DNA of 39,660 bases from Acanthamoeba castellanii str. Neff. Its lineage: Eukaryota > Discosea > Longamoebia > Acanthamoebidae. Positions 26,072 to 33,231 of this stretch are shown here, in pieces (position 1 is the stretch's first letter; each line of letters starts with the position of its first letter). Under the pieces are notes generated by a model, which had not been told where the DNA came from, did no database searches, and worked only from the letters and a program-made list of their open reading frames with translations. The stretch is taken from positions 180,677 through 220,336 of the forward strand of contig NW_004457596.1 of NCBI RefSeq assembly GCF_000313135.1, written 5' to 3'. A program made the translations under genes and the position numbers.

Positions 26072-28101
26072 ATGGAATCGGAAATCAATTCAGCTGAGGG
26101 GAGCGTTTTCGTTGGAGACGACATCGACTGGCAATCTCTTGGTGCGTCGCCCCCATCCTCCCCCTTCAACACTGTGACGCAGTGATTTGTGGTTGGGCGG
26201 AGCAACCGTGTTAAATTAAATCATTAATAAAGAACACAATAATCGATGCATGTGTGGTGAGAGCAGACAAGTCCAAGTTCTACGTCTGGTCTTTTGCGTT
26301 CTTCATGGGTGTGCGGACGCTGGTCTACCCGCCCATTCTTATCAAGACCAGGCTGCAGGTGCAGCAGGTACCGCACACCGACGCCACACGACACCACACC
26401 ACACACGCGCCAGCGAGCTGACTCCACTTGCTTGCGCGACCGATCAGGGGCGTTCGCAGTATCGAGGCACCTTTGACGCATTCCGCAAGATATTCAAGCT
26501 GGAGGGATTCAGAGGTATGTGAAGAGCCATGAACCTTAGCAAGCTGGTGTGCGTGCGTGCGTGCGTGCGAACTGACCTTCCTCTACTTACGACGCCAGGC
26601 TTCTACAAGGGCTTCCTCACCACATCGGTGGGCATCATTCCCGGTATGGAGTCGCTCACACGATGACGAAAGGAGTGGGTCAGTGTATGTTGCTGACCTC
26701 CCCTGTGCTACATGTCAATTCTTCTTGCAGGCCAGTTCATGTACATCACAGTCTACGAGTTTGTGCGACATCGAATCAAGTCATTTTTCCCTACAGACTC
26801 GTTGAGATACGGTGCGGCGCCTTGTCTCGCACACCACAATCATCAACTCCCTCCAGATTCATGTGTCCCTACATTACTCGAATACTCATCGACGCTCTCG
26901 TTGTGATGCTTCATTCGCCATCGAGTAGATGCTCTTCGCAACTTCATCGGAGGCGGCACGGCTTCGCTGGCCTCGTCCTTGGTGAGCGTGCCGCTCGACG
27001 TCATCTCTCAACTTCTCATGATCCAGGTCCGTACGAGAGGCCTGACACGCCCACCGTGTCGTCGCCTAGCACTCACTTCCTCGCCCTCTTTCTCCTTCAC
27101 TCGCACAACACAGGACGGAACGGTGAATAAGCGGAAGTACTCGGGCGGCATCAGTACGTAGTACCGACCTCGCGCAGCCGATCTTGCTTGCTTGGCTGCT
27201 TGCTGGTGTGGTGATCGCTCGCAAGCTCACTCATGTGCGCATCACCAGACGCGTTTTGCGAAATTTTGAAGACGGAGGGGGTGCGAGGGCTGTACCGCGG
27301 CTATACGGCGTCGATGATGGTCTACGTCCCCTCGTCCGGCATCTGGTGGGGCACCTACGCCAGCGGTACAATCATACCACTCACTGACGACTCTTTGGTT
27401 GTTTTCTCAAACCTTTTCTCTTTCGTTCTTTCGTTCTTTGATGTGTACGGTGGGGAAAAACCACAGTCAAGGGCAAGGCCGCCGCATTCATCAACGAACA
27501 GGGCGGGTTGCTCCGGCAGTTGGATGTGCTCGTGTTCGGGCTCTGTGGTATTCTTGCCGGCAGCACTGCCGGTACAGGCCTCACTCCGCTCGCTCTCGAC
27601 GTGTGTGTGTCCCACGGTAGATGATTGTGGATGTGTCTCACCGCACACGTCAAACGATCGCTCGTTGTTGCAGTGGTGGTGACCAACCCGATGGACGTAG
27701 TCAAGACCCGGCTCCAGGTGCTGGCCTACACCAACCCTCTTCCCCAGCGACTTCGGCCGAAGCAGCGCCGCCGCCGCCGCAGCAGCAGACCACGACCAGC
27801 AGCCAGCGGCCACCAATCGCCTCTTCAACTCGAAGTTATCAGAAGATCTCCATCTGGGCGACCGCCAAGCAACTGCTCCGAGAAGAAGGTGCCCTGCGTG
27901 GGTTGCTTTGTGCTGTGTTGCGTCATGTGTCTGAGAGCCCTTGAAAGCTCACACATACGGCCGTTATTCCCCATACACGTATCACTAGGTTGGCGAGCGC
28001 TGAAGAAGGGCATCACGGCGCGCATGATGTCGATGGCCCCCGTGTCCTTCCTCATGACCATCACCTACGAGCAGGCCAAGCGGCTCTCCGTCAAACAGTA
28101 G
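26072..28101 (+). CDS. SLC25A44: Mitochondrial carrier, SLC25A44 type
   Basis: This is a three-repeat inner-membrane transporter; mammalian SLC25A44 moves branched-chain amino acids into mitochondria. About ten exons start MESEINSAEGSVFVGDDIDW at 26072. Repeat 1 has KSKFYVWSFAFFMGVRTLVY, PPILIKTRLQVQQ, YRGTFDAFRKIFKLEGFRGF and YKGFLTTSVGIIPGQFMYIT. Repeat 2 has NFIGGGTASLASSLVSVPLD, VISQLLMIQ and GVRGLYRGYTASMMVYVPSS. Repeat 3 has VVTNPMDVVKTRLQ, then a low-complexity Gln/Thr/Ser stretch, then ISIWATAKQLLREEG and WRALKKGITARMMSMAPVSF. It ends YEQAKRLSVKQ. Carrier signatures in repeats 2 and 3 keep the acidic residue; repeat 1 lacks it, as in human SLC25A44. The repeat 3 exon boundary near 27718-27785 is uncertain. 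Confidence 0.88.
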
Positions 28102-28201
28102 CAGCTGGCGGCATCAAAGGAATGTTAAGAACATTTCTTAGATATTTAAATTCCAAACGGAAATTAAAAAACAAACTCGACAATATTACAACACTGTACT
28201 T

Positions 28202-31200
28202 ATGATGGAGATCGGATCGGGGAAAGATGGGGAGGCAGATGGAGGAGGTGTCTATACGATCGCGGTGGTGGGAGGAGGCGGGGTGGGCAAATCTTCCCTC
28301 ATCCGTCGATTTATCGAGCGGGTAGGCAACAAAAGGAACGATGAAGCGGAGGAAGCCATAGTCAAGACGGATGAGGGCGAAGGAGACGAATACGAACCCA
28401 CTCTACGCGATGAGTACACCATCCGCATCCACCTATCCGCTCAACGCTCCTGTACGCGCCTCCCTTCGCCTTTCGCTTTCGCTTTCGCCTTCGCTCTTCC
28501 CCCCCCCCTCCGGGGGACTCAACAGCCATGCCCCTTTCCGCCCTCACATGAGTGTCGTGTCGCCTGGTTCGTGTCTGGTCGTGAATGCACAAAGGCGTGG
28601 TGACGTTCATCGACACGGCGGGCCAGGAGCAGTACGTGGAGGCGCGACGCGAGGCCATCGGCTCGGCCCAAGGCTTCCTCCTCGTTTACGACGTCACCCA
28701 GCGGTAGCTCCCCCCCTATTCGTCGTAGACAAGCTGTTGGGGGCGGCTGCTGACGATGTTGGGTCGGACCGTTGCGTGCAGGATGAGCTTTGAGGAGTGC
28801 GAGGGATTCGTTGATGACGTTTGCCGCGCGAAGAACAAGGACTCGCGAGATCTGCCCATGCTCGTGCTGGGCAACAAGAACGACCGCCCCGCCGACAAGC
28901 AGGTACACCACCTCACCTCCTTGTGCTCGTGTGTGTGTGCGTGTGCGTGTGCGTGGCGTGTGCGCGCCCGCGCTCAGTCTCTGATTGCTGTGGCCGAGCA
29001 GGTGAAAACTGAAGACTTGCAATGTTTTGGCGATGACATCGGCTGCCCGTGGCGGTACGTTCACTGCCTCGCACCCCTAGCATGCCCCGGCGGAGGCTCA
29101 CGAAGAGACACGGCACGCGTGCACTATGACGTCGTCCAGGGAGGTGAGCGCCGCGGACGGGATGGGCGTGGAGGAGGCGCTGCGGACCCTGATCGAGCTG
29201 ATCGACGTGAGCTTCAGCCGGGGCAAGGAAGGGGTCCTGGCCATCACACCCAGCACCCTCAATCGCTGGAAGAAGGTGCTCGCACGGCACGCGCTACATT
29301 TCGCGACTTGACTTTCGGTCTAACTCGAACCGACACACACACACACACACACACAACGTTGCGTGGGGCTGGTGAACAGTACTGGTTTGTGCTGAAAGGC
29401 GACGAGCTCAACTACTTCAAGAGCACCAAGGGCATGCCGATCTTGTCCAAGCCCAAGGGCACCATCAAGTTGGTACGAGCCGCCCCTCGGGCACGCGTGA
29501 ATTGTATCCGCGGCTCATGCTCTTGGTGAACGCAGGAGGGCATGATCGAAGTACGACGAGCGCACAAGGATGTGGGACGCGAAGATGCCCTGGTGATGGT
29601 CATGCCCACCGGCACCTTCTACTTCGGAGCCAAAAGCAGGTGAACCACATTCCTCTCGCGGTGGTGTGCGTGTGTGCGTGTGTGCGTGTGTGGTGTGTGT
29701 GTGTGTGTGTGTGCATACCAACGTGATTTGGCGCAGGAAAGAGAGGGAAGAATGGCTCGGCGTGCTGAAACGGCACGTGCGAGCGGTGATGATGAAGAAG
29801 TTCAACTTCCCCTTCGAAGGGGAAACCGCGACGGAGATCGGCGAAAGCTGCACCAGCGATTTGGACCAGGGACGATACCTCACCACCACCGCCGGCGAGC
29901 GCGCATTGCTGTTCGAGAGCTCTGGCAAGATCAGGCGATCGAAGAAAAAGAGCACCAAGGCGAAGAGCGGCGATCTTTCGCTGAGCAGTGGCGACGTGCC
30001 GACCGTGATAGACAAGATAAGCAAGAGAGAGAAGCAAGAGAAGAAAGAGAAAATGAAGAAAAAGAACGAAGAGCGAGAAGGCATGCCGCTGGTAAGAGAG
30101 GACGAAGAGGAGGAAAAGAACGAAGCCATCGATGTCTTTACCATAGCCGTGTTGGGCGGTGGCGGAGTGGGCAAGTCATCACTCATCACACGATTCCTGG
30201 TCGATGATTTCTATGGCGAGGACACCGCCGACCCAACGTTGCAGGACGAGTACTCGGGCCGCATTGTGATCGACAACCGTGCTTGTGCGTCTCCCTCTCT
30301 GTTGTTTTTGTCGCTGTTGTGTGTTCGCTCAACATGCTGACGTGTGCGTTGCGCACAAAGGCGTGGTGACGTTCATCGACACGGCGGGCCAGGAGCAGTA
30401 CGTGGAGGCGCGACGCGAGGCCATCTGCTCGGCCCAAGGCTTCCTCCTCGTTTACGACGTCACCCAGCCGTACGTTTGACTCCCGAGCTCAGTCTGCATG
30501 CGTTGGCCTGAAGCGACAGTGATCATCTTTCCGTCCGTTGCGTGCAGGATGAGCTTCGAGGAGTGCGAGGGATTCGTTGACGATGTGTGCCGCGTGAAGA
30601 ATCAGGACTCGTCCGAGCTGCCCATGCTCGTGCTGGGCAACAAGAACGACCGCCCCGCCGACAAGCAGGTACACTCCTCGACAATCCGTCTTACTTCCGC
30701 ACATTCCACATGCATTCCCAAATTGATTTCTCTTCTTTGTGCTGCGTGCGGTTGTGCAGGTTTCAACTGAAGAGCTCCGGAAGTTTGCCGATGCTGCGGG
30801 GTGTCCCTGGAGGTATGCGGAATCTTACATGGTTTTTCTGTGTCGTTTGTTGACACACGACACACACACACACACACACGACACACACACGACACACACA
30901 CAGGGAGGTGTGTGCGGCATCGGGAGACGGCATCAAGGAGAGCCTGTGGGCGCTGATCGAGCTGATCTCCGTCAGCCGGAGCAACGGCAAGGGAGGAACG
31001 CTGTGGCTCTCGTCCAGCACCAACCCGCGATGGAAGAAGGTTTGCCCCATCTTCGTAGAGGGCCTTGCTCATGAATGGAATGCAAACCAACACAACATTC
31101 CTCTCTGCATTCCACAGCGATGGTGTGTGTTGAAGAAAGACGAGCTGCGCTACTACAAGCACTCAAAGGACGTTCTGTTCGGTAAGCAAGCCGGAGGTGT

Positions 31201-31831
31201 GAAACTGGTGCGTGAACTGAGCTTAACAACACAAACTCCTCCACCGTGCGCTAACCGATCGCTGGCTTGCAGGAGGGCATGATTGAGGTAAGAAGGGTGG
31301 GCAGCGAGGTGAAGAGAGAGCACTCACTTCAGATGGTCACCTCCCTCGGCACTCTCTTCTTCTCTGCCGAATCCGAGTACGCCATCATCTTCCTCGCAGA
31401 GATGTGTTACAGCTTTCAAGTCAACACACGACACTCATGACACACACGACACACACACACACGCACACACGCACACACACGCACACAGGTCCGAGCTCAA
31501 TGCCTGGGTGGACGTCCTCAAACGCCACGTGCGTGCTGTTGGGATCCGCAAGTACAACGTCACGCTCCACCCGGAGCGGGGCAAGGAAGGCAGGGACGGC
31601 GAGGGCGGGCCTGTCGCGATGAGCGACCGAAACGAAAGCGAAAGCGAAAATAAGAACGAAAGCGACGTCGAGGGAAGGAAGAAAAAGCAGACCTGGGCCG
31701 CGGCGGAAGATACCACCAATACGTCGAGCAACGACTCGTCGACCGACGGAAAGAAAGAAGACGTCGAAAGAGCGAAGAAGACCAACAACGGCGAGGAGAG
31801 CGTCAAGCGGAGCACCACAGCGGGACAGTAG
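28202..31831 (+). CDS. Tandem Ras-PH-Ras-PH protein
   Basis: Fifteen exons join without a phase error to give 789 aa. Module 1 has a P loop (VVGGGGVGKSS), an insert of about 20 residues, switch I (EPTLRDEYT), DTAGQEQY, NKND and a G5-like EVSAADG. A PH domain follows (YWFVLKGDELNYFK to the Trp of EEWLGVLKRHV). A basic/acidic linker leads to module 2: VLGGGGVGKSS, DPTLQDEYS, DTAGQEQY, NKND, EVCAASG and a PH domain (RWCVLKKDELRYYK to NAWVDVLKRHV). All five nucleotide-binding motifs are intact in both modules, so both may bind GTP. Internal exons have matching sizes: 109, 121, 53, 136, 93/90 and 104 nt. No CAAX box is seen; the PH domains probably provide membrane targeting. Both copies lie in one continuous frame across exon 29737-30284, so they are not two genes. 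Confidence 0.9.
29335..29355 (+). repeat. (CA)n microsatellite in intron
   Basis: About 10 CA units in the intron before the first PH exon of the Ras-PH gene. Confidence 0.92.
30853..30903 (+). repeat. (CA)n/GACACA microsatellite in intron
   Basis: CA runs separated by CGACACACA units; lies in the Ras-PH module 2 intron equivalent to the one ending at 29139 in module 1. Confidence 0.92.
31437..31488 (+). repeat. CA-rich microsatellite running to acceptor
   Basis: CACACA and ACGCACAC units run right up to the acceptor CACACAG used by the last Ras-PH exon at 31489. Confidence 0.92.
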
Positions 31832-32522
31832 TGCGAGAAAGGAGCGCCAGGAGAAGCGAAACACGCCGAGCAAGATGCTGATGACGTTCCTCCGCACCTC
31901 GCTCGCCAATCTCAAGGAGGGCAGCGGTGACGCGACCAACCGACTGGACAGAAGCCCAAGCTCAGGCGGCAGCAGTGACGAGGCTGCATCGCCGCTGTCG
32001 GGCAGTCCGTCGTCGTCGGGTCGCCGACGCAGCACGCTGTCGCTGGGCCGCAAGAGCGGAAGCATGTACGCACCGTCTCGATCGGCTCCGTTACCGGCCG
32101 TCGAGGAGCGCCAGCGGAGCCAGTCGGTCGCTCGGCAGGACCACGGCGATGGCACAACGGGGTCGGCGACCACCTCACTGCCAGGGTCACCGCAGCGAGC
32201 CGCTGTAAAGAAGGAGGCGACGCGGCGGAAGGCAAAGAGCGAAGACGACGACGAGTGGAAGAATGTCTTCGGCGCCGAGAAAGCGAAGACGGGAGAAGCA
32301 AAGAACGAAGAGAAGAAAAAGAACGAAGGCGAAAAGAGGAAACAGAAAAACGAGGACGACAAGAGCGAAGCAAATGAGACGAGCGATCTGGCTGCCTCCA
32401 AGACTCAAGTGGTGACCTCTCCGCGACACAGAAAGAAGAAGGAAAAGGAAGAGGAAAAGGAGGAGGCCGACAGCCACACCAAACTAACCAAGAAGAACAA
32501 GAAGGCAAAGAAGGAGAACTGA
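31830..32522 (+). other. Ser/Lys-rich open frame, probable tail of the Ras-PH gene
   Basis: Directly overlapping the TAG stop at 31829-31831, the +1 frame stays open for 230 codons to TGA at 32520-32522. It reads SSARKERQEKRNTPSKMLMT, then a Ser/Pro/Gly/Arg-rich region (31930-32190) and a Lys/Glu-rich end. An internal ATG lies at 31875. The composition continues that of the last Ras-PH exon. No promoter-sized gap or convincing intron separates them. It may be a tail reached by an unseen splice, a frameshift, or a sequence error, or a separate small gene. The stop lies only 24 bp from the convergent isochorismatase stop. Confidence 0.5.
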
Positions 32523-32546: not shown

Positions 32547-33231
32547 TCACACCGCCTTGACCACTTCGTCGGTGGTCACCACCCATGCGAACTCCCTGTG
32601 CAGATCGCTCAGACTGCACTGGTGCACGTCCTCCGCGCTCCACTTGCGCCCGTCGACCCCCACCCGATCGAAGGTGGCGCAGGCGTCGCCCACGAGATAC
32701 GTGTCGAAGCCCAGGTTGCCCGCCATCCGCGTGGTGGTGCTCACGCAGTGGTTGGTGGTCAGCCCGCACAGGACCAGTGTCGTGATGCCCCGCGCGCGGA
32801 GCTCCTCCTCGAGCGTGGTGCCGATGAAGCTGCTGTTGACGTGCTTGGTCAGCCGGCGCTCGCCCTCGATCGGCGCACACAGCGGGACGGCGGCGAAGCC
32901 CTCCGGGCTGAAGTCTGGGTTGAGCGGGCAGCCGGCCTCGAGGGAGTGGTGGTGGACGTGCCACACCGGGCGCTTGGCGGCCCGGAATGCGGTGAGGAGC
33001 GCGTAGATGTTGGTCTCGGCCTGCGGGTTGTTGCGTGCGCCGCCCCAGTGGGCCAACTCATCGAATCCTTTTTAATTAAAAATGTAATAAATAAATAGGC
33101 CAATAAATACTCATAAATAATAAGGTGTAAAGGGATGTGGAGGGAGGAGGCATACCATGCTGCACATCGATCACCACGAGTGCCGTAGCCTGCTGAGGCA
33201 GAGTGGAAGGGAGCGGCTGAGGCGTGGACAT
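32547..33231 (-). CDS. Isochorismatase-family cysteine hydrolase
   Basis: Two exons on the minus strand encode about 200 aa. A short first exon starts at ATG 33231 (MSTPQPLPSTLPQQATALVV) and a long one begins FDELAHWGGARNNPQ, with the stop at 32549-32547. The catalytic triad of the superfamily is visible: Asp in VVIDVQHG, Lys in LTKHVNSSFIGT and Cys in GLTTNHCVST. Family members hydrolyse nicotinamide, N-carbamoyl compounds, isochorismate and similar small molecules; the substrate here cannot be told. Length fits the family (180-220 aa). Such genes are common in bacteria and have spread among protists, so transfer is possible, but the intron and GC-rich codons show it is well settled. It is head-to-head with EFG1. 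Confidence 0.9.

What the first reader, a model, noticed from the sequence alone, without database searches (positions are those of the whole stretch)
28202..31831. Double-barrelled Ras-PH-Ras-PH GTPase in one chain
Seen: two complete Ras G domains (P loop, switch I, DTAGQ, NKND, G5) and two PH domains alternate in one frame. Exon 29737-30284 carries the end of the first PH domain, the linker and the P loop of the second Ras, so these are not two neighbouring genes. Known: Ras proteins are normally single-domain and use a lipidated tail. Inference: an obligate intramolecular GTPase pair with PH-based membrane targeting, perhaps a new signalling architecture in amoebae.
Basis: partly seen in the sequence, partly recalled or inferred. 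Interest (0 to 1): 0.88.

Follow-up and report, generated by a model that had tools for sequence, protein, structure and literature searches.

The report
Two Ras switches in one amoeba protein
An Acanthamoeba gene appears to encode one protein carrying two copies of a Ras switch, each followed by a PH domain, made by doubling an older Ras-PH module; it would be an unusual way to wire two molecular switches together.

Summary
Fifteen exons (28202-31831, fourteen GT..AG introns) join without an internal stop into 789 aa with Pfam Ras, PH, Ras, PH. Exon 29737-30284 runs from the end of PH1 through the linker into the P loop of Ras2; linker GC3 is coding-like, and a relative's exon 8 differs in two residues. 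The seven intron phases repeat exactly, so a whole Ras-PH unit was duplicated. The host is Acanthamoeba (profilin II 125/125 identical to PDB 1f2k). The module is older than the tandem: the same genome holds a single Ras-PH-SH3 gene, two database proteins are single Ras-PH, and the five G domains form one clade (100/100). Corrections: G5 is degraded (SAA, CAA); unit 1 has a switch I insert; the stop at 31831 is probably not the native end, as four of four relatives read on for 226-236 aa; exons 2-3 and 9-10 look homogenised by gene conversion. 'Obligate intramolecular pair' is untested. Ten paper searches listed nothing on this architecture. No transcript evidence was available.

The parts
28202..31831 (+). 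whole gene as modelled: exons 28202-28451, 28595-28703, 28782-28902, 29002-29054, 29140-29275, 29380-29472, 29536-29639, 29737-30284, 30361-30469, 30548-30668, 30760-30812, 30904-31039, 31118-31207, 31273-31376, 31489-31831
   Evidence: spliced translation without internal stop, all GT..AG
28256..29203 (+). Ras domain 1 (exons 1-5), P loop 28271-28296, net insert of 16 residues before switch I against unit 2
   Evidence: Pfam, alignment, pattern
29231..29788 (+). PH domain 1 (exons 5-8), ends approximate
   Evidence: Pfam PH, two stretches; ends by alignment to unit 2
29789..30136 (+). lysine/glutamate-rich linker, inside exon 8 together with the end of PH1 and the start of Ras2
   Evidence: open frame, GC3 0.74; relative P0049 182 of 184 residues identical over exon 8, edge residues from split codons included
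30137..30967 (+). Ras domain 2 (exons 8-12), P loop 30155-30180
   Evidence: Pfam 425-587 of the protein
30992..31531 (+). PH domain 2 (exons 12-15)
   Evidence: Pfam 596-690 of the protein
31532..31831 (+). C-terminal tail as read in the window; no CaaX end
31833..32522 (+). probable rest of the native tail, in another frame in the window; relatives read straight into it
   Evidence: open frame, GC3 0.74, P0046, P0047, P0048, P0050
28595..28902 (+). exons 2-3 with the intron between, near-copy of exons 9-10 (30361-30668); probable gene-conversion tract
   Evidence: 98% and 91% nt identity of the exons; four-fold sites equal 32 of 33 against 26 of 55 elsewhere

Best explanation
One gene encodes one protein with two Ras-PH units in a row. 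It arose by tandem duplication of a whole Ras-PH unit, introns included, in a family of CaaX-less Ras GTPases in which a PH domain follows the G domain. Shown: anatomy, intron pattern, sister relation of the units, single-unit relatives, intact G1-G4 residues in both G domains. Inferred: both G domains bind and hydrolyse GTP; the PH domains address the protein to a membrane or a partner instead of a lipid tail; the two switches work in cis as a paired or bivalent switch. Unit 2 keeps the family's ordinary switch I spacing; unit 1, with its insert and faster change, is the more specialised and perhaps regulatory one. Gene conversion keeps switch II to G4 (exons 2-3 and 9-10) nearly the same in both.
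For: Spliced frame; Pfam domains; linker GC3 0.74 (its halves 0.80 and 0.68) against 0.77 and 0.80 for exons 1-7 and 9-14; exon 8 of relative P0049 identical in 182 of 184 residues, no gaps, while its intron read-through differs from the window's frame; repeated intron phases; unit 1 and unit 2 sisters 100/98 on the Ras tree and 98/96 with exons 9-10 left out; single Ras-PH-SH3 paralog with two introns at the same codon and phase; P0001 and P0002 single Ras-PH; KRas-equivalent G12, K16, S17, T35, D57, G60, Q61, N116, K117, D119, A146 kept in both units (KRas numbers recalled).
Against: No transcript, peptide or assay was available. The G5 lysine is missing in both units (also in P0001, not in C48 or P0002). 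The PH domains only partly fit the phosphoinositide-binding motif that I recall. An open frame alone is weak here: antisense frames of 231 and 191 aa also lie over the linker. No tandem protein was found outside Acanthamoeba in 3 of 3 protein searches, so the tandem's conservation is known only from near strains, and no relative that I saw spans the whole gene. The Ras-PH clade sits on a long branch (1.57).
Confidence: 0.62

Rival explanations
1. Two neighbouring genes, each Ras-PH, with the linker serving as end of the first and start of the second.
For: Each unit resembles a single-unit relative; there is a conserved ATG in the linker (MPLVRED); the most AT-rich 60 bases of exon 8 (from 30011, 35% GC) come near the 31% GC of the stretch before the gene.
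Against: No stop in the linker frame and coding-like GC3; another in-frame linker ATG (MKKKNEE) is not kept in P0049; a first gene would have no stop in its frame before the second P loop.
Confidence: 0.12
2. One chain, but only unit 2 is a working switch; unit 1 is a regulatory, pseudo-GTPase-like domain, as those reported in p190RhoGAP (PMC5593906, abstract seen in listing).
For: Unit 1 evolves faster (branch 1.31 against 0.16), has a net insert of 16 residues before switch I and a changed effector loop YEPTLRDEY.
Against: Unit 1 keeps the P loop, switch I threonine, DTAGQ and NKND, and the exons for DTAGQ and NKND are kept nearly equal to unit 2.
Confidence: 0.22
3. The tandem is an assembly artefact.
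For: A draft of 250 contigs; the C-terminal frame is locally broken.
Against: Units are only 54% identical outside exons 9-10, introns differ, and P0049 from other contigs has the same PH1-linker-Ras2 junction.
Confidence: 0.03

Closest known systems
Single Ras-PH-SH3 protein of the same genome (C48:181083-183813; part listed as 'PH domain containing protein' of A. castellanii Neff, P0060)
   Same: CaaX-less Ras domain followed by PH; two introns at the same codon and phase
   Different: one unit, SH3 domain after the PH, P loop GGGATGKS
P0001 (JGI metagenome, 919 aa) and P0002 (EukProt transcript, 521 aa)
   Same: Ras then PH, four-glycine P loop, PTLxDEY or PTLxEEY switch I
   Different: one unit each; long charged tails (P0001) or an SH3 domain (P0002)
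Miro GTPases (PMC4810086, PMC4100572: starts of abstracts seen in listing)
   Same: two small-GTPase domains in one chain
   Different: EF hands between them and a mitochondrial membrane anchor; PH absent (recalled)
H-, K-, N-Ras
   Same: closest solved structures by sequence to unit 2: KRas, 107 bits over the G domain
   Different: single domain, lipidated CaaX tail, SAK in G5 (recalled; SAK also)
AGAP (centaurin gamma) proteins (recalled)
   Same: GTPase-like domain and PH in one chain
   Different: ArfGAP domain, absent here

Membership tests
Ras family small GTPase (PF00071) | Pfam match over the curated cut-off | tested here: met
   226 bits against 21.6, two stretches
Ras family small GTPase (PF00071) | G1 to G4 motifs | tested here: met
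   GGGGVGKS, PT, DTAGQ, NKND in both units
Ras family small GTPase (PF00071) | G5 SAK (varies among small GTPases, recalled; not decisive alone) | tested here: not met
   SAA in unit 1, CAA in unit 2; the alanine is kept
Ras family small GTPase (PF00071) | GTP binding and hydrolysis | not testable with these tools
   needs protein
classical H/K/N-Ras | CaaX tail | tested here: not met
   ends AGQ in the window, KEN or KENKN in four relatives
PH domain (PF00169) | Pfam match over the curated cut-off | tested here: met
   102 bits against 25.1, two stretches
PH domain (PF00169) | phosphoinositide binding | not testable with these tools
   not all PH domains bind lipids (recalled)
Ras-PH clade (defined here) | G domain groups with other Ras-PH proteins | tested here: met
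   five of five in one clade, 100/100, of 18 rows, on a long branch
Miro | two GTPase domains | tested here: met
Miro | EF hands | tested here: not met
   none among 15 Pfam families up to E 0.01
Miro | C-terminal membrane anchor | not tested
   no transmembrane prediction was run; the tails are charged
AGAP | ArfGAP domain | tested here: not met
   none among 15 Pfam families

The most novel reading that the evidence does not exclude
A cis-paired Ras: two working Ras switches on one lipid-tail-free chain, each addressed by its own PH domain, with the catalytic exons kept alike by gene conversion while unit 1's switch I diverges, so that the chain reads two activators or effectors at once. It would be a Ras signalling form for which no description was found here.
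Probability: 0.35. Interest if true: 0.78.

Novelty: new variant of a known kind. Interest (0 to 1): 0.56.

Why it matters
Ras dimerisation on membranes is a debated point (recalled). A natural chain that ties two Ras domains together, with a single-unit relative in the same genome, would let one ask directly what pairing does to a Ras switch. It also points to a small clade of Ras GTPases that carry a PH domain and no lipid tail, for which no description was found in the listings of the ten paper searches made here.

Tried and rejected
Two separate genes: rejected as the main reading (see rivals). Assembly artefact: unlikely. Structure: AlphaFold2 on P0002 as stand-in with a 37-row alignment gave a confident G domain (block means over 90 for residues 11-180 except three blocks of 73-83) but a poor PH part (about 37-69) and pTM 0.47, so nothing is concluded about how Ras and PH pack, and no fold search was made. 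The window's own spliced protein was not folded. Viral contigs hold no exact match to a 28-base stretch of exon 2. The Acanthamoeba genome paper (PMC4053784) was searched by terms only: 'Ras' once (in the word RASA), 'PH domain' and 'small GTPase' none. Tree: of nine Ras-like loci of the assembly prepared, L003 and L006 were left out as near-copies, and P0011 of the seven database proteins prepared there was left out; row P0070 was not trimmed to its G domain because the trimming rule failed. The PH-only tree gives the same sister pair (95/95) but puts P0001 with C48 (73/83), unlike the other trees. Searches of the protein database have limited recall: searches scored only the 7994 and 7991 candidates sharing most words, and one search did not list P0001 or P0002, although P0002 and a part of P0001 were in its query alignment. 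The own-genome search with PH2 did not find even the C48 paralog's PH, so it cannot exclude further distant Ras-PH genes. Own-genome searches with P0001 and P0002 gave, besides this gene and C48, many Ras-like loci that were not checked one by one for a PH domain.

Full report
Observation. The gene was rebuilt from the raw sequence. With 15 exons from 28202 to 31831 the frame is open from ATG to stop, 789 aa, and all 14 introns are GT..AG. hmmscan gives Ras (226 bits, two stretches) and PH (102 bits, two stretches). The order is Ras, PH, Ras, PH.

One gene or two. In exon 8 the used frame has no stop, the other two forward frames have 1 and 12; antisense frames of 231 and 191 aa are open too, so openness alone says little. 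GC at third codon positions is 0.74 in the linker (0.80 and 0.68 in its halves), 0.77 in exons 1-7 and 0.80 in exons 9-14; the stretch before the gene (28105-28201) has 31% GC overall, and the lowest 60-base window of exon 8, in the linker, has 35%, which is near it. A protein predicted from other contigs (P0049, JGI, 2 member sequences on 2 contigs) covers exon 8 with 182 of 184 residues identical (edge residues from split codons included) and no gap, then reads into an intron that differs from the window's. One of two methionines in the linker that could start a second protein is a threonine there; the other is kept. This favours one chain. No transcript evidence was available, so it is not proven.

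Host. An exon of the same assembly encodes a profilin identical in 125 of 125 residues to PDB 1f2k, Profilin II (that 1f2k is from Acanthamoeba castellanii is recalled). P0060, named by its source as a PH domain containing protein of A. castellanii str. Neff, is 100% identical over its match (57% of the C48 paralog). The window lies in contig C73 of a 38.4 Mb, 250-contig assembly.

Origin. The seven intron phases of unit 1 (1,2,0,2,0,0,2) recur in unit 2, so a genomic segment with its introns was duplicated. A tree of 18 G domains puts the five Ras-PH domains in one clade (100/100, on a branch of 1.57) and the two units as sisters (100/98) with P0001 next (90/83). Without exons 9-10, on five rows of G domain and PH, the units are still sisters (98/96), and unit 1 has the longer branch (1.31 against 0.16). 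Identity between units is 54% outside exons 9-10 (116 of 216) against 29-39% of either unit to the other three proteins.

Single-unit relatives. The same genome holds a gene with ten exons (C48) for a 647 aa Ras-PH-SH3 protein. Two of its introns sit at the same codon and phase as introns 1/8 and 2/9. Of 45 proteins (E up to 0.001), two carry both Ras and PH: P0001 and P0002; Pfam confirms Ras-PH and Ras-PH-SH3. Of 15 (E up to 1e-10), one (P0002). Of 54 (E up to 1e-5), none has both, and P0001 and P0002 themselves were not listed, so that search misses relatives. The tandem was seen only here and, by its junction, in P0049. A search of the own genome with PH2 gave six matches, four of them in this gene and two weak; it did not find the C48 PH either, so more distant Ras-PH genes are not excluded. 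The four-glycine P-loop pattern occurs twice in the assembly, both in this gene; the C48 P loop differs and is not matched by it.

Function by residues. Against KRas (unit 2) and the family alignment both units keep the P loop, the switch I threonine, DTAGQ with the catalytic glutamine, and NKND. G5 is SAA in unit 1 and CAA in unit 2. Switch I is YEPTLRDEY in unit 1 and ADPTLQDEY in unit 2, against YDPTIEDSY in KRas, so effectors probably differ from those of classical Ras. Unit 1 alone has a net 16 extra residues between helix 1 and switch I. None of the Ras-PH proteins seen ends in a CaaX motif. The reading that PH domains replace the lipid tail is inference.

Gene conversion. Exons 2 and 9 are 98% identical in DNA, exons 3 and 10 91%, the pairs 4/11 to 7/14 52-65%, compared without gaps. 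Four-fold degenerate sites agree in 32 of 33 cases in exons 9-10 and in 26 of 55 in the other exons compared. Intron 2/9 between them is only partly alike, most at its 3' end. Recent, exon-centred gene conversion is the simplest reading; it was not tested with other strains. It means that the likeness of switch II to G4 between the units does not tell the age of the duplication.

C-terminus. Four of four relatives that hold the last exon (P0046, P0047, P0048, P0050) read on past the place of the window's stop for 226-236 aa into a well-conserved tail; in the window this tail is open in another frame up to 32522 with GC3 0.74. So the end at 31831 is probably a local break of frame, either of this strain or of the assembly. 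Intact copies exist; no mend was made.

Literature. Ten searches of the open-access library listed no Ras-PH or tandem Ras-PH protein; seen were listings and starts of abstracts, in four searches only the top of a longer list (12 of 23, 12 of 44, 15 of 45, 15 of 399). In the Acanthamoeba genome paper (PMC4053784) term passages only were seen. Miro (PMC4810086, PMC4100572: abstracts in listing) is a well-known single chain with two small-GTPase domains. Papers outside that library were not searched.

Verdict. Real, correctly placed, and one chain in all likelihood. It is a duplicated member of a little-known CaaX-less Ras-PH clade: a new variant of a known kind, with an untested but testable idea of a cis-paired Ras.

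Noticed in passing
28595-28902 and 30361-30668: Exons 2-3 and 9-10 are near-identical also at synonymous sites while other exons and introns are not: probable gene conversion centred on exons.
   Followed up: partly
31800-32522: Frame break before a conserved tail; four of four relatives read through.
   Followed up: partly
L017:2584-5314: Single Ras-PH-SH3 paralog; the Neff entry P0060 (373 aa) is listed with PH and SH3 but no Ras domain, so the public gene model probably lacks the 5' exons.
   Followed up: partly
about 29332-29356, 29660-29714, 30855-30903, 31437-31488: Several introns carry long CA or GT dinucleotide runs, some right up to the 3' splice site.
   Followed up: no
27625-28101 and 32547-33071: Neighbours: end of a mitochondrial carrier gene (+) about 100 bases upstream, and an isochorismatase-family frame (-) downstream.
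   Followed up: partly
L009, L010, L011: The whole-genome protein search gives an open frame of 1229 aa for several exons of this gene, while the six-frame list gives 247 aa for the frame of exon 8; the reason was not found.
   Followed up: no
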